Assembly (NCBI RefSeq): GCF_025717005.1
Contig: NZ_JAOVZU010000006.1
Span: 140,925 to 204,924, forward strand
Direction: 5' to 3'
From: Actinotalea endophytica
Lineage (GTDB): Bacteria; Actinomycetota; Actinomycetes; Actinomycetales; Cellulomonadaceae
Length of the DNA: 64,000 nt
Translations under genes and position numbers: made by a program
In this document: positions 20,957 through 30,760 of the stretch, piece after piece
Position numbering within the stretch: position 1 is the stretch's first letter
Layout of the letters: each line of letters opens with the position of its first letter
Notes under the pieces: model-generated
Databases searched by the model: none
What the model was told of the DNA's origin: nothing
The model's input: only the letters and a program-made list of their open reading frames with translations

Positions 20957-21903
20957 GCGCGGTCCAGGCGGGCCGGCTCGGGGTCGGCGTGGTGGGCGCG
21001 GGCCGGGTCGGAGCAGTTCTCGGCAACGCCCTGCGTGCGGTCGGGCACGCGGTGGTCGGTGCGAGCGGGATCTCCGAGGCGAGCCGCGAGCGGATCGGGG
21101 CCCTGCTGCCCGGGGTGCCCGAGCTCGAGGTGCCGCAGGTCGTCGAGCGGGCCGAGCTGGTCCTGCTGACCGTGCCGGACGACGCGCTGCCCGGCCTCGT
21201 CGAGGGTCTCGCCGCGACCGGCGCCTGGCAGCCGGGCCAGATCGTGGTGCACACCTCCGGCGCGTCCGGCACGGGCGTGCTGGCGCCGGCCGCGCGGGCC
21301 GGGGCGATCACGATCGCGCTGCACCCCGCGATGACCTTCACGGGCACCTCGCTGGACCTCGCGCGGCTGCCCGGCTGCACGGTCGCCGTCACCGCCGCCG
21401 CACCCGTGCTGCCGATCGGCCAGGCCCTGGTCGTCGAGCTCGGTGCCGAGCCGGTGGTGGTCGCGGAGGAGCAGCGGCCGCTGTACCACGCGGCCCTGGC
21501 GCACGCCGCCAACCACCTCGCCGTGCTCGTCGCCCAGGCCGCCGACGCGCTGCGGGCCGCCGGGGTCGACGACGCGGACCGGGTGCTCGGCCCGTTGCTG
21601 TCCGCCGCGCTGGACGGCGCGGTGCGTTCCGCCGCCGCGGGCGTCGCGGCCCCGGGTGGGGTGGCCTCGCTGACCGGACCGGTCGTGCGCGGCGACGCCG
21701 GCACGGTCCGCGCCCACGTCCGGGTGCTCGGCGAGCTCGCCGGGAACCGTCCGGACGCGGCGGACGTCGTGGTCGCGTACCGCGCGTTGGCCCGCTCCGC
21801 GACGGCCCGCGCGCTGCGCGGTGGACGGATCGACGCGGGCCAGGCCGAGCGCCTGCTGGACGCCCTCGAGCCCACCGGGCCCGACCCTGAGGAGGATCGA
21901 TGA
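20953..21903 (+). CDS. Rossmann-fold dehydrogenase with DUF2520 domain
   Basis: This 316-residue protein has an N-terminal NAD(P)-binding fold ([18 protein letters not shown], near residues 10-27) and the all-helical DUF2520 C-terminal half ([20 protein letters not shown]). The overall layout matches 6-phosphogluconate or ketopantoate reductase types. Its start overlaps the PH-protein stop and its stop overlaps the panC start. That position, together with the lack of panE here, makes ketopantoate reduction a reasonable hypothesis. The fold is well supported; the reaction is inferred only. Confidence 0.85.
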
Positions 21904-22784
21904 GAGTCGTCAGCACCAAGGCGGAGCTCGCGGACGCGCTCGCCGCGCTGCCCGGGCGCCGCGCCGTGGTGATGACCATGGGTGCGCTGCACGAGGGGCA
22001 CCTCACGCTCGTGCGCACCGCCCGCACCCTCGCGGACGTCGTGGTCGTCACGATCTTCGTGAACCCGTTGCAGTTCGGGCCGACCGAGGACCTGGCGCGC
22101 TACCCGCGTGACCTCGAGGGCGACGTGGCCAAGCTCGCCGGTGCCGGCGCGGACCTCGTCTTCGCACCGGGTGTGGCCGAGGTGTACCCGACCCCGGCGG
22201 TGGTCACGGTCAGCGCCGGCCGGGTCGGCGAGGTGCTCGAGGGGGAGTTCCGGCCCGCGCACATGGACGGGGTGCTCACCGTGGTGCTCAAGCTGCTGCA
22301 CCTCACGGCACCCGACGTCGCGCTGTTCGGCCAGAAGGACGCCCAGCAGCTCGCGGCGATCCGCCGGATGGTGGCGGACCTCGACCTGGGTGTGGAGATC
22401 GTCGGCGTGCCCATCGTGCGCGAACCGGACGGCCTCGCGCTCTCCTCGCGGAACGCCTACCTCGCACCCGACGAGCGGACGGTGGCCCTCGCGCTGTCCC
22501 GCGCGCTCGCCGCCGGTGCTGACCTGGCGGCCGCGGGCGGCGGTCCGCGGGCGGTGCACGCGGCCGCGGCGGAGGTGCTCGCCGCCGAGCCGGGCGTCGT
22601 CCTGGACTACCTCGCGCTGGTCGACCCCGCGCTCGACCCGCTGCCGGAGGGGTACCGTGGTTCGGCCCTCCTGCTCGTGGCCGGGCGGGTGGGGACCACG
22701 CGCCTGATCGACAACGTGGTGATCGACATCGCGGGGATCGACGTCGCGGGCGCCGGGTCGGTCGAGAGCAACGAGGAGCACTGA
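21900..22784 (+). CDS. panC: Pantoate--beta-alanine ligase
   Basis: PanC joins pantoate and beta-alanine with ATP to make pantothenate, the coenzyme A precursor. The 294-residue protein has the nucleotidyltransferase HxGH region [14 protein letters not shown] near residue 25, [31 protein letters not shown] and the [10 protein letters not shown] signature. The ATG overlaps the DUF2520 stop by four bases and its stop shares one base with the panD start, so the product of PanD is used by the enzyme encoded immediately before it. panB is not in the window. Confidence 0.95.
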
Positions 22785-23215
22785 TGTCCACCGGTCGTCT
22801 TCGCACGATGATGACGGGCAAGATCCACCGCGCCCGGATCACCCACGCGGACCTGGACTACGTCGGGTCGATCACGATCGACGCCGACCTCATGGCCGCT
22901 GCCGACATCCTGCCCGGTGAGCAGGTGGACGTCGTCGACGTCACCAACGGTGCGCGGCTGACCACGTACGCGATCCCGGGCGAGCCCGGCAGCGGCGTGC
23001 TCGGGATCAACGGCGCCGCGGCGCACCTCGTCGAGCCCGACGACCTGGTGATCGTGATCGCCTACGGGCAGCTCTCCGACGTGGAGGCGCGCACGTACAC
23101 GCCCAGGGTCGTCCACGTGGACTCGGGCAACCGCATCGTCGACCTCGGGACCGACCCCGGGGTGCCGCAGCCGGGTCTGAAGACCTCGGCGGTGCCCTGG
23201 GACGGGCACCGGTGA
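22784..23215 (+). CDS. panD: Aspartate 1-decarboxylase
   Basis: PanD decarboxylates L-aspartate to beta-alanine. The proenzyme is self-cleaved between Gly and Ser in YVGSITID (about residues 27-28), which creates the pyruvoyl cofactor. The 143-residue protein also shows [22 protein letters not shown] and [10 protein letters not shown]. It is slightly longer at the N-terminus than many homologues: Met9 or Met10 is the usual first residue, but the ATG at 22784 has GAGGAG upstream and couples to panC. The stop overlaps the nadB start (GTGA). Confidence 0.95.
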
Positions 23216-24894
23216 GGCTCGCCCGGCGCCTTGCCGGACCTCAGCCGGGCTGGACCGCGCACGCCGACGCGATCGTCGTCGGGTCAGGGGTCGCGGGTCT
23301 GACGGCGGCACTGCGGCTGCGGTCTCGCGTCCCTCGCGTGCTGCTGGTCACCAAGGGGCCGCTCGCGTCGGGGTCGACGGTCTGGGCACAGGGTGGCATC
23401 GCCGCCGCGCTCGACCCGGAGGACAGCCCCGAGGCCCATCTCAGCGACACGCTGGTCGCCGGTGCCGGGCTCTGTGACCGGGGCGCCGTGGAGGTGCTGG
23501 TCACCGAGGGTCCGGACCGCGTCCGTGAGCTCATGGCGCTCGGCGCCAGGTTCGACACCGACTCCGACGGCGGCATCTCGCTGACCCGCGAGGGCGGGCA
23601 CCACGCCGACCGGATCGCGCACGCGGGCGGTGACGCGACCGGCGCCGAGATCTCCAGGGCCCTCGTCGCGCAGCTCGAGGCGGTGCGCAACGACCCGGGC
23701 ATCGAGGTGCTCGAGAACGCCCTGGTGCTCGACCTGCTGACCGCGGCGCCGGACGCCGACGGCCGGCCCGGGCCGGTGTGCGGCGTGACGCTGCACGTCA
23801 TCGGCGCGGGCCAGCGGGACGGCGTGGGCGCCGCCCTGGCCCCGGCCGTGATCCTGGCGACCGGCGGGATCGGGCAGGTCTACCCGTCCTCGACCAACCC
23901 GGTGCAGGCGACGGGCGACGGGCTGGCGGCCGCGCTGCGGGCCGGTGCGTCGGTGGCGGACGTGGAGTTCGTGCAGTTCCACCCGACCGTGCTGTGGCTG
24001 GGGTCGGGCGTGAAGGGGCAGCTCACCCTGGTGTCCGAGGCGGTGCGGGGCGAGGGCGCCATGCTGCTGGACACCGACGGCCTGCGGTTCATGCCCGAGG
24101 TGCACCCGATGGCGGAGCTCGCGCCGCGGGACGTGGTCGCGCACGCGATCGTGCGGCGGATGGCGGAGACGTCCTCGGACCACGTGTTCCTCGACGCGCG
24201 GCACCTGGGGGCGGACTTCCTGCGTGCGAGGTTCCCGACCATCGACGAGAGCCTGCGGGCCGAGGGCATCGACCTGGCGACCGACCTGGTCCCGGTGGCC
24301 CCGGCCCAGCACTACCACTCGGGTGGCGTGCTGACCGACCTGCGTGGGCGCTCGGACCTCGAGGGGCTGTACGCGGCGGGCGAGGCGGCGTGCACCGGTG
24401 TGCACGGCGCGAACCGGCTCGCCTCGAACTCGTTGCTCGAGGGACTCGTCTACGCCTACCGCGCGGCGGCCGACGTGGCCTCCCGGGTCGCCGATCGCGA
24501 CCTGGTGCAGCGCGAGCCGGTGGAGCGTGACGGGGTCGCGCTGGTCGCGGCGCCGACCCGGAGCCGGGTCCAGCGTCTCGCGGCTCAGGGGCCCGGCGTG
24601 ATCCGCACGGCTGCGGGTCTCGAGCGCGCGGCCCAGGCGCTCGCCGCCGTGCCGACCCACGCGCACGAGGTGCCGGGGGTCCAGGCGACCCCGCAGGCGG
24701 CCGAGTGGGAGACCACGAACCTGCACCAGGTGGCGACGCTGCTGACGCTCACGGCGCTGCGGCGCGAGGAGTCCCGCGGCGGGCACTACCGCGAGGACTT
24801 CCCGGAGACCTCACCGGCCTGGCGTGCCCGGCAGGTCGTCCGGCTCACCCCCGACGCCGAGCCCGAGATCGCGCTCGCCCCCGTCGCCGACTGA
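23212..24894 (+). CDS. nadB: L-aspartate oxidase
   Basis: NadB is an FAD enzyme that oxidises L-aspartate to iminoaspartate, the first step of de novo NAD synthesis. The 560-residue protein has the FAD motif [16 protein letters not shown], the [13 protein letters not shown] loop, [28 protein letters not shown] and the succinate-dehydrogenase-like [13 protein letters not shown]. The GTG start overlaps the panD stop. PanD and NadB both draw on aspartate. The next enzymes of the pathway are usually adjacent; here nadC is 3.4 kb away beyond a leftward sulfur module and nadA is absent. Confidence 0.94.
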
Positions 24895-24936
24895 GCCACC
24901 AGGCTCCTCACACGCCCGGCACCGCTCGCGCCGCGA

Positions 24937-25010
24937 CGCCGAGTTCGCTGGTGGGCGCCGAGTTCGCTGGACCTGACCAGCGAACTCGGCGACGGTCAGC
25001 GAACGCGGCG
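24937..25010. repeat. Two direct and two inverted copies of a 15-bp unit; terminator between convergent genes
   Basis: CGCCGAGTTCGCTGG occurs at 24937-24951 and 24956-24970. Its perfect inverse complement is at 24977-24991, and a copy with one mismatch is at 24997-25010. The inner pair can form a 15-bp stem with a six-base loop; the outer pair can extend it or form an alternative stem. It lies just past the nadB stop and just past the stop of the leftward gene at 25032, so it probably ends transcription from both sides. A run of nine G follows (25014-25022). Confidence 0.75.
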
Positions 25011-25031
25011 CCCGGGGGGGGGTGGTGGGTC

Positions 25032-26711
25032 TCAGCCGACCTCGAGGACCAGCTCGGGCAGCGCGGCGCGCAGGGTGAGCATGCCGCCGGAGAGGTTCGC
25101 CGAGTCGAGGCCCGCCTGGTCGAGGACGCGGTGGGCCAGGTACGAGCGGAAACCGCTCGCGCAGTGCACCCGCACGGGACGGCCCTCGGCGGCCTCGCGG
25201 ATCTCCTCGAGCCGGGCCCGGACCTCGGTGTGCGGCACGTTGAGCGCCTTGGGCAGGTGCCCGCGGCGGTACTCGCCGGCCGAACGGACGTCGAGGATCA
25301 GCGCGGTGTCCATGACCTCGTCGAGCTGGTGCGGGTACCAGAGGGTCAGCGTCCCGTCGAGGACGTTCTGCGCGACCATGCCGGCCATGTTGACCGCGTC
25401 CTTGGCCGAGCCGTAAGGCGGGGCGTACGCGAGCTCGAGCTCGGCCACGTCGTCCATGGTCATGCCCGCGGCGAGCGCGGTGGCGAACACGTCGATCCGC
25501 TTGTCCACGCCGGCGCGCCCGACGGCCTGGGCGCCGAGCAGGCGGCCGTCCGGCGCGAACATCACCGTCATGTGCAGCTGCTCGGAGCCGGGGAAGTAGC
25601 CCGCGTGGTGGCCCGGGTGGGTGTGCACCACGTGGTGCTCGATGCCGGCGCGCTGCAGCTGGTGCTGGCTGGCGCCGGTGACCGCGGCGGTCAGGCCGAA
25701 CACGCGGACCACCGCGGTGCCGATCACCGGGCGCGCCTCGGTGGCCTCGGTCAGCCGGCCCATGATCGAGTCCGCAGCGCGGCGGCCCTGACGGTTGGCC
25801 GGGCCGGCCAGCGGGATCGGGCCGAGCGCGCCGGTCACGCCGTGCCGCACAGCGGTCGCGTCGCCGACCGCCCAGATGTGCCGGTCCGAGGTGCGCTGCG
25901 CGGTGTCCACGACGATCGCACCCTGCTCGGTCAGCTCCAGGCCCGCGCCGGCCGCGAGGTGGGTGTCCGGCCGCACGCCGACCGAGAGCACCACGACGTC
26001 GGCGGCGAGCACCGTGCCGTCGGACAGCTCGACCTCGACGGCGTGGTCGGCGCCGCGGGTCGGTCGCACGCCCTGCGCGGCGACCCCGACGTGCGTGGTC
26101 ACGCCGTGCGCGCTGAGCTCGTCGTCGAGCAGGCTGGCCAGCTCGGCGTCCAGCGGCGGCAGGACGTGCGGCGCGAGGTCGACGAGGTCGACGTCGAGAC
26201 CGCGCTCGCGCAGGGCCTCGGCGGCCTCCAGGCCGATGAACCCGGCGCCGAGCACGACGGCCCGGGACGCGGAGTCGGTGAGCAGCGCGCGGATCGCGTC
26301 GGCGTCCGGGACGCTGCGCAGGGTGTGCACCTGCGGCAGGTCGAGACCGTCGATCGGCGGGCGGACGGCGGCGGCGCCGGGGGCGAGCACGAGTGCGTCG
26401 TAGTCGACGACGTCGGTGCCGTCGTGCGGGAGCCGCACGGTGACCTGCTTGGCGTCCGGGTCGATCGAGACGACCTCGTGGCCGGTGCGCACGTCGAGGT
26501 TGAGCGCGGCGCGCAGCGACGCGGGGGTCTGCAGCAGGAGGGAGGCGCGGTCGGCGATCTCGCCACCGACGTGGTACGGCAGTCCGCAGTTGGCGAACGA
26601 CACGTAGTCGCCGCGCTCGAGGACGACGATCTCGGCGTCCTCGTCCAGGCGGCGGGCCCGGGCCGCGGCGCTCATCCCTCCGGCGACACCGCCGACGACA
26701 ACGATCCTCAT
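25032..26711 (-). CDS. CoA-disulfide reductase / persulfide reductase with C-terminal rhodanese domain
   Basis: This 559-residue flavoprotein joins a pyridine-nucleotide disulfide oxidoreductase to a rhodanese. The FAD motif VVVGGVAGGMSAAARAR is at 4-20, the redox Cys42 is in SFANCGLPY, and the NAD(P) motif is VVLGAGFIGLEAAEAL. The C-terminal rhodanese domain (about 455-559) has Cys517 in HCASGFRS. Known fusions reduce CoA-disulfide or CoA-persulfide and so detoxify reactive sulfur. ATG 26711 follows GAGGA at good spacing. The gene has its own operator 130 bases upstream, matching the operator of the adjacent rhodanese-regulator unit. Confidence 0.88.
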   Translation of the reverse strand: MRIVVVGGVAGGMSAAARARRLDEDAEIVVLERGDYVSFANCGLPYHVGGEIADRASLLLQTPASLRAALNLDVRTGHEVVSIDPDAKQVTVRLPHDGTDVVDYDALVLAPGAAAVRPPIDGLDLPQVHTLRSVPDADAIRALLTDSASRAVVLGAGFIGLEAAEALRERGLDVDLVDLAPHVLPPLDAELASLLDDELSAHGVTTHVGVAAQGVRPTRGADHAVEVELSDGTVLAADVVVLSVGVRPDTHLAAGAGLELTEQGAIVVDTAQRTSDRHIWAVGDATAVRHGVTGALGPIPLAGPANRQGRRAADSIMGRLTEATEARPVIGTAVVRVFGLTAAVTGASQHQLQRAGIEHHVVHTHPGHHAGYFPGSEQLHMTVMFAPDGRLLGAQAVGRAGVDKRIDVFATALAAGMTMDDVAELELAYAPPYGSAKDAVNMAGMVAQNVLDGTLTLWYPHQLDEVMDTALILDVRSAGEYRRGHLPKALNVPHTEVRARLEEIREAAEGRPVRVHCASGFRSYLAHRVLDQAGLDSANLSGGMLTLRAALPELVLEVG

Positions 26712-26843
26712 GGTGGTCCTCACTGGTCGGTCGGCTCGAGCCGACGAACGGTCACTGGCCGCATCGTGCCGTCGAGGCTACGGCCCGGGCACGACGAAGG
26801 GTGGGCACCTGGCCCACCCCGTTGCGGTTCCTCGGCACCAACC

Positions 26844-26863
26844 ATATACCCCGGGGGGTATAT
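26844..26863 (-). promoter_or_regulatory. CstR/CsoR-type operator of the CoA-disulfide reductase gene
   Basis: ATATACC-CCGGGG-GGTATAT is a 7-bp perfect dyad around a 6-base centre. Its core, ATACC-N6-GGTAT, is identical in form to the site at 28200-28215. CsoR-family repressors, including the persulfide sensor CstR, bind C/G-rich centres flanked by AT like this. On the minus strand a -10-like TATGGT (26846-26841) overlaps it, so a bound repressor should block transcription. The site is well supported; the bound protein is inferred from the gene at 27518. Confidence 0.78.
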
Positions 26864-26882
26864 TTCCGACAGTCCGAAGGTC

Positions 26883-27521
26883 CTAGTCCGGCACCGGGCG
26901 GACGGCCTCGACGACCGTGTCCAGCGCATCCCGGTCGGCCCCGGCGACGCTGCGGCGGACGATCTCGGCGCGCTCGACCCGCAGGCCGGCGCCGGTCAGG
27001 ACCTCGGCGACCTCGTCCGGGTCGGTGAGCACCTCGTGCCGGCGCGGTCCGCCCACCCCGGCGGTGAGGTTCGTCCGGTCGTGGCCGACGAGCAGGAGCC
27101 GCCCACCGGGCGCCAGTGCGCTCGCCGACAGCTCGAGCGTGCTGCGGGCCTGGTCCGGCGGCAGGTGGACGAAGCTCAGCAGCACCAGGTCGGCCGAGCC
27201 GGGCTCGGGGCGATCGGTGCTGACGTCGGCGACCGCCCACCGGATCGGGCCGGGCAGCGCGCCGTCGGCCGCGAGCCGCTCCGCCGTCTCGCGACCTCGC
27301 TCGACCGCGACCGCGGAGAAGTCGACCGCGTCGACGGACCAGCCCAGGCCGGCGAGCCAGATCGAGTGCCGGCCGTCGCCGCAGGCGACGTCACGCGCGC
27401 GGCCGGGCGGCAGCGCGCTCACGACCTCGCGGACCGTGACGTTCGGTCCGGCGTGCCAGGGCGAGCCCTGGGCGTAGCGCTGGTCCCAGTCGGCCGCGGT
27501 GCCCCGGGCCGGGTCGGTCAC
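26883..27521 (-). CDS. Class I SAM-dependent methyltransferase (TehB-like)
   Basis: This 212-residue protein has the SAM-binding motif ARDVACGDGRHSIWLAGLGW, VDAVDFSAVAVERGR and the later LVLLSFVHLPPD, the order of TehB/thiopurine-type class I methyltransferases. The N-terminal WDQRYAQGSPWHAGPN is also typical. The GTG start overlaps the regulator stop by four bases, so sensor and enzyme are made together. In that setting the acceptor may be a sulfide, thiol or selenium compound; this is inference from neighbours, and the sequence does not fix the acceptor. An open frame runs further upstream, but only inside the regulator gene. Confidence 0.82.
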   Translation of the reverse strand: MTDPARGTAADWDQRYAQGSPWHAGPNVTVREVVSALPPGRARDVACGDGRHSIWLAGLGWSVDAVDFSAVAVERGRETAERLAADGALPGPIRWAVADVSTDRPEPGSADLVLLSFVHLPPDQARSTLELSASALAPGGRLLLVGHDRTNLTAGVGGPRRHEVLTDPDEVAEVLTGAGLRVERAEIVRRSVAGADRDALDTVVEAVRPVPD

Positions 27522-27835
27522 GCGAGCGAGAGGAACAGCTTCTGGAGCTTGGCGCGGTCCACGCCCGCGGCCTCGTCGCCGCGGGTGATGCACTGCTCGA
27601 GCCCGGAGGCGATGATGACGAAGCCCGCGCGGTCGAGCGCCTTGGACGCTGCCGACAGCTGGGTCACCACGTCGGCGCAGTCGGCCCCGGACTCCAGCAG
27701 CTTGAGCACGCCGCCGATCTGTCCCTGGGCGCGGCGGAGCCGGTGGATGACCGCGGTCAGCTCCTCGGGGTCGAGCTGCATGCCTACCTCCGAACCGCGC
27801 GGCTTCTGCTGCGCCGTCGACGACTCCTCGGCCAT
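27518..27835 (-). CDS. CsoR-family repressor, CstR (persulfide-sensor) type
   Basis: This 105-residue all-helical DUF156 protein has HRLRRAQGQIGGVLKLLESG, with Arg and Gln residues that contact DNA. Cys53 and Cys82 are 29 residues apart, the spacing of CsoR and CstR. The His of copper-sensing CsoR, four residues before the second Cys, is Gly78 here. Losing that ligand while keeping both Cys is the CstR pattern, where persulfides bridge the two thiols and release DNA. I chose the ATG at 27835; a GTG six bases upstream is possible. It sits between rhodanese and methyltransferase genes and has two matching operators nearby. Confidence 0.85.
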   Translation of the reverse strand: MAEESSTAQQKPRGSEVGMQLDPEELTAVIHRLRRAQGQIGGVLKLLESGADCADVVTQLSAASKALDRAGFVIIASGLEQCITRGDEAAGVDRAKLQKLFLSLA

Positions 27836-27842
27836 GCTCACC

Positions 27843-28190
27843 TCACCTCACAGATCCGCCTGCCATGCGCCAGGCTGCGATCCCGCCGGAGAGGCTTGTG
27901 GCCTTGTACCCCATGGATCGTAGCTGGGCGGCAGCGGACTTCGACCGGGACCCCGAGGCGCACATCACGACGACGGGGACGTCCTTCTTCAGCCGCCGCG
28001 CCTCGCCGGCCAGCTTGGCCATCGGGATGTGGCGGGCCTGTGGCGCGTGGCCGGACTTCCACTCCGAGGTCTCGCGCACGTCGACCAGCTGGGCGCCGTC
28101 GTCCAGCAGGGTCAGCGCGCGGTCGACCCGCACGTTCTTGGGAAGGGCGTCGGGGTCACGGCTCAGCAGGCGGTCCAGGAAGGAGGGCAT
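27843..28190 (-). CDS. Single-domain rhodanese (sulfurtransferase)
   Basis: This 115-residue protein is one rhodanese domain: VRVDRALTLLDDGAQLVDVRE, then the active-site loop with Cys77 in VVVMCASGSRSKSAA, then LSGGIAAW. It should carry a persulfide on Cys77 and pass sulfane sulfur to an acceptor in the cytoplasm. The chosen ATG (28190) gives the standard size; it lacks a ribosome site but lies six bases after TATTCT, so it looks leaderless. It is the first gene of the rhodanese-regulator-methyltransferase unit. Eight bases separate its end from the regulator start, and its stop codon lies in that gene's ribosome site. Confidence 0.88.
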   Translation of the reverse strand: MPSFLDRLLSRDPDALPKNVRVDRALTLLDDGAQLVDVRETSEWKSGHAPQARHIPMAKLAGEARRLKKDVPVVVMCASGSRSKSAAAQLRSMGYKATSLSGGIAAWRMAGGSVR

Positions 28191-28202
28191 GCGCAGAGAA
28201 TA
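28191..28202 (-). promoter_or_regulatory. Leaderless -10 element of the rhodanese gene
   Basis: On the minus strand TATTCT (28202-28197) is followed by six bases and the ATG. The first three bases of the box lie inside the operator at 28200-28215, so repressor binding and polymerase binding should exclude each other. Confidence 0.55.
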
Positions 28203-28215
28203 CCCCCTGGGGTAT
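28200..28215 (-). promoter_or_regulatory. CstR/CsoR-type operator of the rhodanese-regulator-methyltransferase unit
   Basis: ATACC-CCCTGG-GGTAT is a perfect 5-bp dyad with a 6-base centre, the same form as the operator at 26844-26863. It overlaps the -10 box of the rhodanese gene, which makes autoregulation by the repressor encoded second in the unit likely. The nadC promoter, pointing the other way, starts 43 bases to the right and might also feel it. Confidence 0.8.
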
Positions 28216-28257
28216 GCGGGGCGCAGCCCGGTCATGTCGCGGTCGACTGCGGGCCTC

Positions 28258-28269
28258 TAGGGTCGACTC
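28258..28269 (+). promoter_or_regulatory. Leaderless -10 element of nadC
   Basis: TAGGGT (28258-28263) is followed by six bases and the ATG of nadC, with no ribosome site between. The -35 region shows no good match to TTGACA. Confidence 0.5.
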
Positions 28270-29178
28270 ATGGACGAGCACCCGGAGCACTCCCCGCAGC
28301 CCGCTCCGCCGGACCCGGCCTGGCTGGCCCGCACCGTGGAGATCGCGCTCGACGAGGACCTCGGCCCGGCGCCCGGCCGGGACGTGACGACGCAGGCCAC
28401 CATCCCGCTCGGCCAGGAGGGGGTCGCGGACCTCGTCGCCCGGGCCGACGGCGTGGTCGCCGGCCTGGTCGTGGTGCAGCCGGTGCTCGACGCCGTCGCG
28501 GCCCGGCTCGACCTGGATCGCGCACTGGTCACGCTCCGCGTCGATGACGGTGCGCGCGTGACCCGGGGCGACGTCGTGGGAGAGCTGCGCGGTCCGGTCC
28601 AGGTACTGCTCGTCGCCGAGCGGACGCTGCTCAACCTGGTGTGCCGGGCCTCGGGGATCGCCACCCACACCCGGCTCTGGGCGGACACGCTCGAGGGCAC
28701 CGCGGCCACGGTCCTCGACACCCGCAAGACCACACCCGGCCTGCGCGCGCTGGAGAAGTACGCCGTGCGGTGCGGCGGGGGCACCAACAAGCGGATGGGT
28801 CTGTACGACGTCGCGATGGTCAAGGACAACCACATCGCCGCGGCGGGCTCGGTGGGCGCCGCGGTGCGCGCGGTCAGGGAGCGGTACGACGTGCCGATCC
28901 AGGTCGAGGCGGACACCCTCGCCCAGGCGATGGAGGCGATCGACGCGGGCGCGGACTTCCTGCTGCTGGACAACATGGCGACCCCGCTGCTCGCCGAGGT
29001 CGTCGCCGCGGTGCGGGCCCGTGAGCCCGAGACCGGGCGGGTCGAGCTGGAGGCGACCGGGAACCTGACGCTCGACCGGGCCCGCGAGGTCGCGTGGACC
29101 GGCGTCGACTACCTCTCGGTCGGGGGACTGACGCACTCCTCGCCGATCCTCGACCTCGCGCTCGACCTGCGCGCCTGA
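28270..29178 (+). CDS. nadC: Nicotinate-nucleotide diphosphorylase (carboxylating; quinolinate PRTase)
   Basis: NadC converts quinolinate and PRPP to nicotinate mononucleotide in de novo NAD synthesis. The 302-residue protein has LNLVCRASGIATHTRLWAD, the catalytic DTRKTTPGLRALEKYAVRCGGG segment with its Lys and Arg residues, VKDNHIAAAG and VEADTLAQAMEAIDAGADF, and ends in the typical ELEATGNL and SVGGLTHS. It is divergent from the sulfur module and separated by it from nadB. The message appears leaderless. lysS follows after 79 bases with its own promoter. Confidence 0.95.
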   Translation: MDEHPEHSPQPAPPDPAWLARTVEIALDEDLGPAPGRDVTTQATIPLGQEGVADLVARADGVVAGLVVVQPVLDAVAARLDLDRALVTLRVDDGARVTRGDVVGELRGPVQVLLVAERTLLNLVCRASGIATHTRLWADTLEGTAATVLDTRKTTPGLRALEKYAVRCGGGTNKRMGLYDVAMVKDNHIAAAGSVGAAVRAVRERYDVPIQVEADTLAQAMEAIDAGADFLLLDNMATPLLAEVVAAVRAREPETGRVELEATGNLTLDRAREVAWTGVDYLSVGGLTHSSPILDLALDLRA

Positions 29179-29245
29179 GGTTCCCGCCGACGTTCGTGCC
29201 CGCCGGGGCGCCCACCGCCGAACGGTCGGGCCGCACCGCCCCCGA

Positions 29246-29257
29246 TAGACTCCCGCG
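29246..29257 (+). promoter_or_regulatory. Leaderless -10 element of lysS
   Basis: TAGACT (29246-29251) is followed by six bases and the GTG at 29258. No ribosome site is visible in the 79 bases between nadC and lysS. Confidence 0.55.
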
Positions 29258-30760
29258 GTGACCACGCCTGACGTCCACGCCGCCGACGACCTCCCGGAGC
29301 AGATGCAGGTCCGCCGCGCCAAGCGCGACCGGATCCTCGCCGAGGGCGGCCAGGCGTACCCGGTGAGCGTGCCCGTCAGCCGGACCCTCTCGCAGGTGCG
29401 CACCGCGCACGAGGGCCTGGCGCCCGGCGAGGAGACCGACGACGTGGTCGGCGTGGCCGGCCGGGTGGTCTTCCAGCGCAACACCGGGAAGCTCTGCTTC
29501 GCGACGCTGCAGGACGGCGAGGGCCACCGTCTGCAGGTGATGCTCTCGCTGGCCGAGGTGGGCGAGGAGAGCCTGGAGGCCTTCAAGGCGGATGTCGACC
29601 TGGGTGATCACCTCTTCGTGCACGGGCGGGTGATCTGCTCCAAGCGCGGTGAGCTCTCGGTGATGGCGGACGAGTGGCGGATGGCGGCCAAGGCGCTGCG
29701 GCCCCTTCCGGTGCTGCACAAGGAGCTGTCCGAGGAGGCTCGGGTGCGCAACCGCAGCGTCGACCTCATCGTGCGGCCCGCCGCACGGGACGCCGTGCGG
29801 CTGCGCGCGGACGTGATGCGCTCGCTGCGGGACAACTTCCACCGGCGCGGCTACCTCGAGGTCGAGACGCCGATGCTGCAGACGCTGCACGGCGGGGCGA
29901 CGGCGCGGCCGTTCGTCACGCACATGAACGCCTACGACATCGACCTGTACCTGCGGATCGCTCCGGAGCTGTTCCTCAAGCGCGCCGTCGTCGGTGGCGT
30001 CGAGCGGGTCTTCGAGATCAACCGCAACTTCCGGAACGAGGGTGCGGACTCCAGCCACTCGCCGGAGTTCGCGATGGTCGAGGCGTACCAGGCGTACGGC
30101 GACTACGACACCATGGCCGAGCTGACCCAGGACCTCATCCAGACCGCGACCCGGGAGGCCCTCGGGACGACGCTGGTCACGCTCGCCGACGGCACCGAGT
30201 ACGACCTGGGCGGCGAGTGGCAGCAGATCACGCTGTACGGATCGCTGTCGGAGGCCATCGGCGAGCAGATCACTCCGCAGACCTCGGTCGAGCGCCTGCT
30301 CGAGCTCGTCGAACGTTTCGACCTTCAGGTGGATCGCGCCCGGCAGAACCACGGAAAGCTCGTCGAGGAGCTGTGGGAGCACCATGTCGGTTCGGCGTTG
30401 CACGCGCCGACATTCGTGCGCGACTTCCCGGTCGAGACGAGCCCGTTGACGCGCGACCACCGCGATGCCGACGGTCTTGTCGAGAAGTGGGACCTGTACA
30501 TCCGCGGGGTCGAGACGGCGACCGCCTATTCCGAGCTGGTCGACCCGGTGATCCAGCGGGAACGTTTCGAGGCGCAGGCACGCCTTGCGGCCGCCGGTGA
30601 CGACGAGGCGATGCGGCTGGACGAAGATTTTCTTGCGGCGATGGAGCACGCGATGCCGCCCAGTGGGGGAATGGGGATGGGCGTCGATCGGTTGCTCATG
30701 GCGATGACTGGGCTCGGGATCCGCGAGACGATCCTGTTCCCGCTGGTCAAGCCGATGTGA
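29258..30760 (+). CDS. lysS: Lysyl-tRNA synthetase, class II
   Basis: LysS charges tRNA(Lys). The 500-residue protein has an N-terminal OB-fold anticodon-binding domain ([22 protein letters not shown]), class II motif 1 around [12 protein letters not shown], motif 2 in [14 protein letters not shown] and motif 3 in the C-terminal [15 protein letters not shown]. The GTG at 29258 appears leaderless. From about 30305 onward the codons shift: A- or T-ending triplets (CGT, CTT, GAT, GAA, GGT, TTT) become several times more common than in the first two thirds, although the protein stays intact. A small membrane protein gene follows after seven bases. Confidence 0.95.

What the first reader, a model, noticed from the sequence alone, without database searches (positions are those of the whole stretch)
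25032..28215. A two-operator reactive-sulfur regulon inserted between nadB and nadC
Four leftward genes (rhodanese, CsoR-family repressor, SAM methyltransferase, CoA-disulfide reductase/rhodanese fusion) lie between two rightward NAD-synthesis genes. Two identical-form dyads, ATACC-N6-GGTAT, stand at the two transcription starts (26844-26863 and 28200-28215). The second overlaps the -10 box of the first gene. The combination of persulfide donor, acceptor and sensor matches the logic of staphylococcal CstR systems, but the enzyme set, with a methyltransferase, differs.
Basis: partly seen in the sequence, partly recalled or inferred. Interest (0 to 1): 0.72.

Follow-up and report, generated by a model that had tools for sequence, protein, structure and literature searches.

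The report
Persulfide-sensing repressor with a wide regulon
This actinobacterium carries a sulfur-sensing repressor whose likely DNA binding site, first seen twice in this operon, recurs in front of about ten other sulfur- or thiol-related genes around the genome, while a site one base longer marks its copper-type genes.

Summary
Four leftward genes (rhodanese, CsoR-family repressor, methyltransferase, CoA-disulfide reductase/rhodanese) lie between nadB and nadC, with perfect dyads at 26844-26863 and 28200-28215. The repressor is of the CstR kind: Cys-Gly-Cys where copper CsoR has Cys-His-Cys. Its operator equals the one published for Streptomyces ScCsoR, so system and motif are of a known kind. 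"Two-operator" is incomplete. The genome has 11 perfect 16-mers ATACCC-N4-GGGTAT (about 0.07 expected), 10 of 11 before genes I class as sulfur or thiol-redox. Across 150 family genomes the 16-mer tracks the CstR-like gene (100 of 112 with it, 3 of 38 without), also within genera. A site one base longer (N5) does not track it (94 of 112, 30 of 38) and often stands at csoR and metal pumps. Nearest classified gene: 16-mers 49 sulfur, 1 copper, 9 neither; 17-mers 0, 14, 10. Some operators overlap SigR-type promoters (11 of 56; background 1 of 322; pattern chosen after inspection). The methyltransferase family recurs beside CstR, persulfide dioxygenase or rhodaneses elsewhere; an MddM1-like H2S/methanethiol S-methyltransferase is the best guess, untested. 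Binding, inducer and activities are inferred. New variant of a known kind.

The parts
23212..24894 (+). nadB (L-aspartate oxidase), left flank
   Evidence: NF005867 and TIGR00551 over cut-off
25032..26711 (-). CoA-disulfide / CoA-persulfide reductase fused to a C-terminal rhodanese; only two Cys, C42 (NCGLPY) and C517 (CASGFR), numbered from the ATG at 26711
   Evidence: (best PDB match 8a56, E 2.5e-150; 8A56 is E. faecalis CoAPR)
26844..26863 (.). operator O2: perfect dyad ATATACCCC-GG-GGGGTATAT, 132 bp upstream of the reductase ATG
   Evidence: an exact site stands before the reductase in fetched relatives L152, L158, L163, L178, L180, L183, L184, L185
26840..26867 (-). candidate SigR/SigH-type promoter around O2, GGAAA-N20-GTT (near consensus only; relatives G066 and G033 have GGAAT-N18-GTT with the operator filling the spacer)
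   Evidence: function inferred
26883..27521 (-). class I SAM-dependent methyltransferase (212 aa, GTG start overlapping the repressor stop)
27518..27841 (-). CstR-type CsoR/RcnR-family repressor (likely start ATG 27781; sensor Cys35 and Cys64 in that numbering; Gly where copper CsoR has His)
27843..28190 (-). single-domain rhodanese, active-loop Cys77 (CASGSR)
28200..28215 (.). operator O1: ATACCCC-CT-GGGGTAT, 9 bp upstream of the rhodanese ATG and 54 bp upstream of the nadC ATG
28270..29178 (+). nadC, right flank, divergent from the operon
   Evidence: TIGR00078 over cut-off

Best explanation
The operon encodes a persulfide/polysulfide-sensing repressor of the CstR/ScCsoR kind and part of its regulon. 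In the reduced state it binds 16-bp sites (ATACCC-N4-GGGTAT) that overlap promoters and blocks them. When sulfane sulfur rises, Cys35 and/or Cys64 is persulfidated or bridged and the repressor lets go. The local genes then move sulfane sulfur (rhodanese), reduce CoA-persulfide (reductase/rhodanese) and probably methylate sulfide or a small thiol (methyltransferase). At the same time about ten other loci are released: persulfide dioxygenase with a rhodanese, two sulfide:quinone-reductase-like genes (one by an exact site, one by a one-mismatch site exact in relatives), two thioredoxins, a glutaredoxin, a rhodanese lipoprotein and others. The copper paralog CsoR uses a site one base longer. SHOWN: gene content, residues, operator copies, their conservation, and co-occurrence with the repressor gene. 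INFERRED: binding by this repressor, the inducer, enzyme activities, SigR-type co-control.
For: Family and residues: PF02583. Of 73 repressors typed (72 fetched frames whose best match was the window's repressor, plus the window), 71 are Cys-Gly-Cys, 1 Cys-Asn-Cys, 1 Cys-Ser-Cys and none Cys-His-Cys; the one fetched frame that matched CsoR better, and the same genome's CsoR, are Cys-His-Cys. Operator: ATACCn6GGTAT is the site mapped for S. coelicolor ScCsoR, which leaves DNA with polysulfide and needs both Cys (PMC7533328, Results and Discussion read). Regulon: 11 perfect sites; for 10 of 11 the nearest gene is one I class as sulfur or thiol-redox. Co-occurrence: 100 of 112 CstR-positive and 3 of 38 CstR-negative family genomes have a 16-mer, Fisher 1.7e-20; within-genus CMH p 1e-14, ten of 14 mixed genera separated perfectly; phylum sample 56 of 70 against 13 of 176. 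In 80 named CstR neighbourhoods: 119 sites with arm spacing 6, 4 with 7, 2 with 5. Reductase: best solved relative is E. faecalis CoA-persulfide reductase, both catalytic Cys present.
Against: No binding or expression data. 12 of 112 CstR-positive family genomes have no exact 16-mer; a looser search gave a site in 2 of those 12 and in 1 of 4 negative controls. In the phylum sample 14 of 70 positives lack sites and 13 of 176 negatives have them, two with many (G193 15, G217 12). One of the 11 G000 sites stands before an SDR and an NmrA-like gene without obvious sulfur link; the AhpD-like and Fer4_22 genes are counted as sulfur/thiol by my judgement. The sulfur and copper labels rest on Pfam names and were partly drawn from the sites themselves. 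Of ten one-mismatch sites in the genome only three are backed by exact sites in relatives; some others (for example in L023, L028, L030) have no evident sulfur link.
Confidence: 0.85

Rival explanations
1. The repressor is a copper sensor (CsoR/RicR) and the operon a copper-stress unit.
For: Same Pfam family; the best NCBIfam hit, far below cut-off (42.5 against 175 bits), is RicR; the csoR operator of this genome shares the same arms.
Against: His ligand replaced by Gly. A Cys-His-Cys CsoR lies elsewhere in the genome with an HMA protein and an HMA P-type ATPase and its own 17-mer. 16-mers track CstR while 17-mers occur with and without it (94 of 112 and 30 of 38, p 0.47). 16-mer neighbours are mostly sulfur genes.
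Confidence: 0.04
2. The repressor senses another thiol stress (nitroxyl, hypochlorite, electrophiles or disulfide stress) and sulfur is only one input.
For: Thioredoxin, glutaredoxin and AhpD-like genes carry the operator. S. aureus CstR also reacts with nitroxyl (PMC5480029, abstract and passages). Some promoters look SigR-type.
Against: SQR-like, PDO-like, DsrE/DsrC and CoA-persulfide reductase genes point to sulfide and persulfide chemistry; the studied actinobacterial homologue responds to polysulfide (PMC7533328).
Confidence: 0.1
3. The methyltransferase is an unrelated hitch-hiker (tellurite/TehB-like or small-molecule methyltransferase) without a role in sulfide handling.
For: Generic class I fold, closest solved structures of mixed function (Slr1183, a heterocyclic toxin methyltransferase, TehB). 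Not found in the operon in L163 and L183. 22 of 29 fetched phylum relatives showed no PDO-like or rhodanese neighbour in their 3.6 kb (the gene caller missed genes in some).
Against: Homologues lie next to CstR in L049, L050, L061, L068 and next to PDO (L224, L226, L237) or a rhodanese (L219, L220, L228, L234) in 7 of 29 fetched phylum relatives. A second, distinct methyltransferase shares an operator with SQR2 in L018 and L171.
Confidence: 0.3
4. O1 is really (or also) a nadC operator, coupling NAD synthesis to sulfur stress.
For: O1 lies 54 bp before nadC; nadC flanks the operator in six fetched same-genus loci and in ten of 80 named loci.
Against: The distance to nadC varies (42-187 bp), while the site sits 1-26 bp from the rhodanese start in the loci where that gene was called. 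In same-genus G107 (L180) and G008 (L185) the operator and reductase are kept without nadC beside them.
Confidence: 0.1

Closest known systems
ScCsoR circuit of Streptomyces coelicolor (SCO0618-SCO0621; PMC7533328)
   Same: Two-Cys CsoR-family repressor, the same ATACC-N6-GGTAT operator close to the transcription start, rhodanese and persulfide dioxygenase under it, repressor in its own regulon
   Different: The paper describes four genes in one place; here 11 perfect sites at 10 loci, with CoA-persulfide reductase, SQR-like genes, thioredoxins and a methyltransferase
Enterococcus faecalis cst-like operon (CstR, RhdA, RhdB, CoAPR; PMC9405070, abstract and passages)
   Same: CstR with CoA-persulfide reductase and rhodaneses; catalytic Cys pair of the reductase conserved (C42 and C508 there, C42 and C517 here)
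   Different: No methyltransferase is named in the passages seen; different phylum
Staphylococcus aureus CstR / cst operon (PMC5480029, abstract and passages)
   Same: Sensor family and logic
   Different: The authors conclude that S. aureus CstR likely directly controls a single operon; this one looks genome-wide. Enzyme set differs
Bacillus licheniformis YrkD cluster (PMC9918477, passages)
   Same: CstR-like repressor with two promoters, dsrE-homologue, SQR and PDO targets, release by sulfane sulfur
   Different: One 11-gene cluster plus a two-component system
Thermus TTHA1953 (PMC10318464, passages)
   Same: Second CsoR-family paralog with its own regulon; half-site spacing matters (one base more or less changes binding about 10- to 15-fold)
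   Different: Different motif (TACNNTACNNNNGTANNGTA)
MddM1 H2S/MeSH S-methyltransferase of Actinomycetota (PMC12904073, abstract and sections 2.2-2.5 plus bioinformatics methods)
   Same: 210 aa against 212 aa, predicted cytoplasmic SAM enzyme, MddM candidates found in Actinomycetota and also Dormibacteraeota, transcript induced by H2S
   Different: No MddM1 sequence was available to compare; identity unknown

Membership tests
CsoR/RcnR (DUF156) repressors | PF02583 domain over gathering score | tested here: met
   72.4 bits, cut-off 22.8
CstR-type persulfide sensors | two conserved Cys and no His at the copper-ligand position | tested here: met
   C-G-C; in-genome CsoR is C-H-C
CstR-type persulfide sensors | operator of the published ScCsoR form at its own promoter | tested here: met
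CstR-type persulfide sensors | release from DNA by polysulfide, not by Cu(I) | not testable with these tools
   needs protein
Copper CsoR/RicR | Cys-His-Cys copper ligands | tested here: not met
S. aureus-like single-operon CstR | operators confined to one operon | tested here: not met
   11 sites at 10 loci (sequence sites, not shown to be bound)
CoA-persulfide reductase (CoADR-RHD) | FAD/NAD reductase with active Cys42 plus rhodanese Cys | tested here: met
CoA-persulfide reductase (CoADR-RHD) | activity on CoA persulfide | not testable with these tools
   needs protein; TIGR03385 matched at 414.7 bits, below its cut-off of 578.8
MddM1 S-methyltransferase | at least 40% identity and 70% coverage to M. 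poriferae MddM1 (the paper's rule) | not tested
TehB tellurite methyltransferase | NCBIfam TehB over cut-off | tested here: not met
   34.5 bits, cut-off 218 (the broader Pfam TehB PF03848 is over its cut-off, 30.2 against 20.4)
SigR/SigH-dependent promoters | GGAAT-N17-19-GTT at the promoter | tested here: inconclusive
   11 of 56 16-mer sites, but the window's own O2 only near consensus and O1 without it; pattern chosen after inspection

The most novel reading that the evidence does not exclude
In Cellulomonadaceae-type actinobacteria two paralogous repressors share the same half-site and are kept apart by one base pair of spacing: 16-mers report persulfide to a CstR, 17-mers report copper to a CsoR. 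Part of the 16-mer regulon sits inside SigR-type promoters, so full expression needs both a thiol-stress sigma factor and removal of the persulfide repressor. The regulon includes a persulfide-controlled S-methyltransferase that disposes of surplus sulfide as a volatile methyl sulfide.
Probability: 0.3. Interest if true: 0.72.

Novelty: new variant of a known kind. Interest (0 to 1): 0.52.

Why it matters
In the papers seen here, CstR-type sensors control one cluster or a few neighbouring genes. Here a short code, readable from any genome, predicts a whole persulfide regulon and largely separates it from the copper-type regulon of a paralog with the same half-site. That makes paralog specificity directly testable by inserting or deleting one base pair in an operator, and it nominates new persulfide-stress genes, among them two methyltransferases.

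Tried and rejected
Copper regulation: rejected on residues and on the separate 17-mer. A chance dyad: rejected on genome counts and controls. Sigma-70 promoter and terminator scan: nothing found. A looser operator in the 12 CstR-positive genomes without a 16-mer: a site in only 2 of 12, and in 1 of 4 negative controls, so their operators remain unexplained. Fold search for methyltransferase function: class I fold at high confidence (pLDDT 92.8) but the neighbours are of mixed function. Paper searches for the spacing rule (0 papers with all six terms) and for CstR regulons or SigR with persulfide listed no paper whose title or abstract start reports it; that covers only this open-licence library and those terms.
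Full report
WHAT IS THERE. The window comes from an Actinotalea-like member of the Cellulomonadaceae: the nearest named relatives of the repressor are Actinotalea and Cellulomonas species and Actinomycetales MAGs, and a same-genus genome (G066) has a contig of the same length as Actinotalea lenta's. Between nadB (23212-24894) and nadC (28270-29178), both rightward, lie four leftward genes: rhodanese, CsoR-family repressor, methyltransferase, and a CoA-disulfide reductase/rhodanese fusion. O1 (28200-28215) lies 9 bp before the rhodanese ATG and supplies the TAT of a possible TATTCT -10 box. O2 (26844-26863) lies between the methyltransferase and the reductase.

THE REPRESSOR. It belongs to PF02583. 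Aligned with M. tuberculosis CsoR, the two Cys ligands are kept and the His ligand is Gly. Of 73 repressors of this kind typed (72 frames from the 80 named loci whose best match was the window's repressor, plus the window), 71 are Cys-Gly-Cys, one Cys-Asn-Cys, one Cys-Ser-Cys and none Cys-His-Cys. The genome has one other family member, beside an HMA protein and an HMA P-type ATPase, and that one is Cys-His-Cys. The operator form is the one mapped by EMSA for S. coelicolor ScCsoR, where polysulfide releases the protein and both Cys are needed (PMC7533328, Results and Discussion read). Sensor type and operator are therefore known.

THE REGULON IS NOT TWO OPERATORS. The genome (20 contigs, 4.25 Mb) holds 11 perfect ATACCC-N4-GGGTAT sites, against 0.05-0.09 expected by composition and 0 for the reversed pattern. 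Nearest genes: the two window sites; an AhpD-like CMD protein; two thioredoxins; a rhodanese lipoprotein behind an SQR-like/DsrC/DsrE set; SQR2 divergent from a second methyltransferase; a rhodanese followed by a PDO-like metallo-beta-lactamase/rhodanese protein; a glutaredoxin; a Fer4_22 protein heading a hydrogenase-like gene set; and one SDR/NmrA pair with no evident sulfur link. SQR and PDO are names given by me from sequence and domain make-up. Allowing one mismatch adds ten sites. Three of the ten, before a CoA-disulfide reductase/rhodanese/TusA/DsrE fusion, a YgaP-like membrane protein and SQR1, have perfect counterparts before the same genes in relatives; the others are unbacked.

CO-OCCURRENCE. 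Of 150 family genomes (a sample of the family), 112 have a CstR-like gene (best E at most 1e-14; the next best E is 2.5e-10). A perfect 16-mer is in 100 of these 112 (293 sites) and in 3 of the other 38 (3 sites), Fisher 1.7e-20. Stratified by genus the association stays (CMH p 1e-14; 0 of 200,000 within-genus permutations reach it; ten of 14 genera holding both classes separate perfectly). In a phylum sample of 246 genomes it is 56 of 70 against 13 of 176. In 80 named neighbourhoods of the repressor (859 kb), arms six apart occur 119 times in 66 loci, seven apart 4 times, five apart twice; 61 of 80 have a sulfur-type neighbour by BLAST and 30 of 80 a PDO-like gene. Exceptions are told under evidence against.

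ONE BASE PAIR LARGELY SEPARATES SULFUR FROM COPPER. Searching the own genome for ATACCC-N1..9-GGGTAT gave only N4 (11) and N5 (4). The four 17-mers stand before csoR, a YHS-domain gene, a P-type ATPase, and a gamma-glutamyltransferase; copper as the metal is inferred from the CsoR context. Family-wide, 17-mers are in 94 of 112 genomes with and 30 of 38 without the CstR-like gene, p 0.47. In eight genomes (59 16-mers, being every exact one of those genomes; 24 17-mers, being every one of six of them, those of G033 and G008 not fetched), the nearest classified gene was sulfur for 49 16-mers, copper for 1, neither for 9; for 17-mers it was copper for 14, sulfur for 0, neither for 10. Fisher on the classified ones is 3e-13, or 2.5e-10 without G000. 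In G107 one divergent promoter (L181) has both: the 16-mer 67 bp from a rhodanese, the 17-mer 19 bp from the pump. Against a strict rule: gamma-glutamyltransferase carries a 17-mer in five genomes and a 16-mer in two, an ABC gene carries 17-mers, and G135, without CstR, has a 16-mer 206 bp from a pump. The classes were seeded partly from the sites. For TTHA1953 spacing is known to matter (PMC10318464, passages); a spacing rule between CsoR and CstR was not found with the searches listed.

A SECOND LAYER. 11 of 56 16-mer sites with a usable neighbour overlap GGAAT-N17-19-GTT, against 1 of 322 upstream windows without operators in the same loci (p 3e-9) and 1 of 35 in reverse orientation; the looser form is 13 of 56 against 3 of 322. 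Against a special tie to sulfur, 17-mers show it too: strict 1 of 22, loose 3 of 22 (p 0.004). The pattern and its spacing were chosen after looking at the sites, and 7 of the 13 are related thioredoxin promoters, so the p values flatter. GGAAT and GTTG as SigR elements are cited in PMC5005934 (passages); the spacing is recalled. In G066 and G033 the operator fills the 18-bp spacer of such a promoter before the reductase; the window's O2 is only near consensus (GGAAA-N20-GTT). The genome has a SigR orthologue over cut-off, followed by a small zf-HC2 frame as expected of RsrA.

THE ENZYMES. The reductase's best solved relative is E. faecalis CoA-persulfide reductase 8A56. It has only two Cys, C42 and C517, matching the catalytic pair C42/C508 described there (PMC9405070, abstract and passages). 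The methyltransferase models as a class I enzyme at pLDDT 92.8. MddM1, an H2S/MeSH S-methyltransferase of 210 aa induced by H2S (PMC12904073, abstract, sections 2.2-2.5 and bioinformatics methods read), is the best candidate function. No sequence was at hand to test it.

VERDICT. A real, well conserved persulfide-response operon of a known kind, whose regulatory reach was underestimated. The added value is the genome-wide set of sites, the one-base spacing split from the copper-type sites, and the SigR-type overlap. All three are computed predictions.

Noticed in passing
L191 (G000:C14:263234), L194, L199, L204, L210, L160, L166: A gamma-glutamyltransferase gene carries a 17-mer in five genomes but a 16-mer in two, as if it changed regulon or answers both.
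   Followed up: partly
L196, L200: An ABC transporter ATP-binding gene carries the same 17-mer in two genomes, possibly part of the CsoR regulon.
   Followed up: partly
G228 (33 sites), G193 (15), G217 (12): Distant genomes with very many 16-mers; G193 and G217 had no CstR-like hit at the threshold used.
   Followed up: no
L024 (G000:C15:58311 and 58377): Two one-mismatch sites 66 bp apart between two TusA genes in a cluster with FlpD and DsrE proteins; possible further regulon member.
   Followed up: partly
L025 (G000:C20:124694): One-mismatch site upstream of a gene pair (DHODB_Fe-S_bind and Fer4_20/Pyr_redox_2 proteins) resembling sulfide dehydrogenase/NfnAB (name recalled).
   Followed up: partly
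window 21900-30760: Pantoate ligase (panC), panD, nadB, nadC and a class II tRNA synthetase (lysS-like) form a cofactor cluster into which the operon is set; nadB and nadC also flank an operator and a CoADR-like gene in Demequina silvatica (L098).
   Followed up: partly
L084: MAG locus where a CstR-like gene lies next to a CsoR and P-type ATPase set, a natural place to compare the two paralogs.
   Followed up: no
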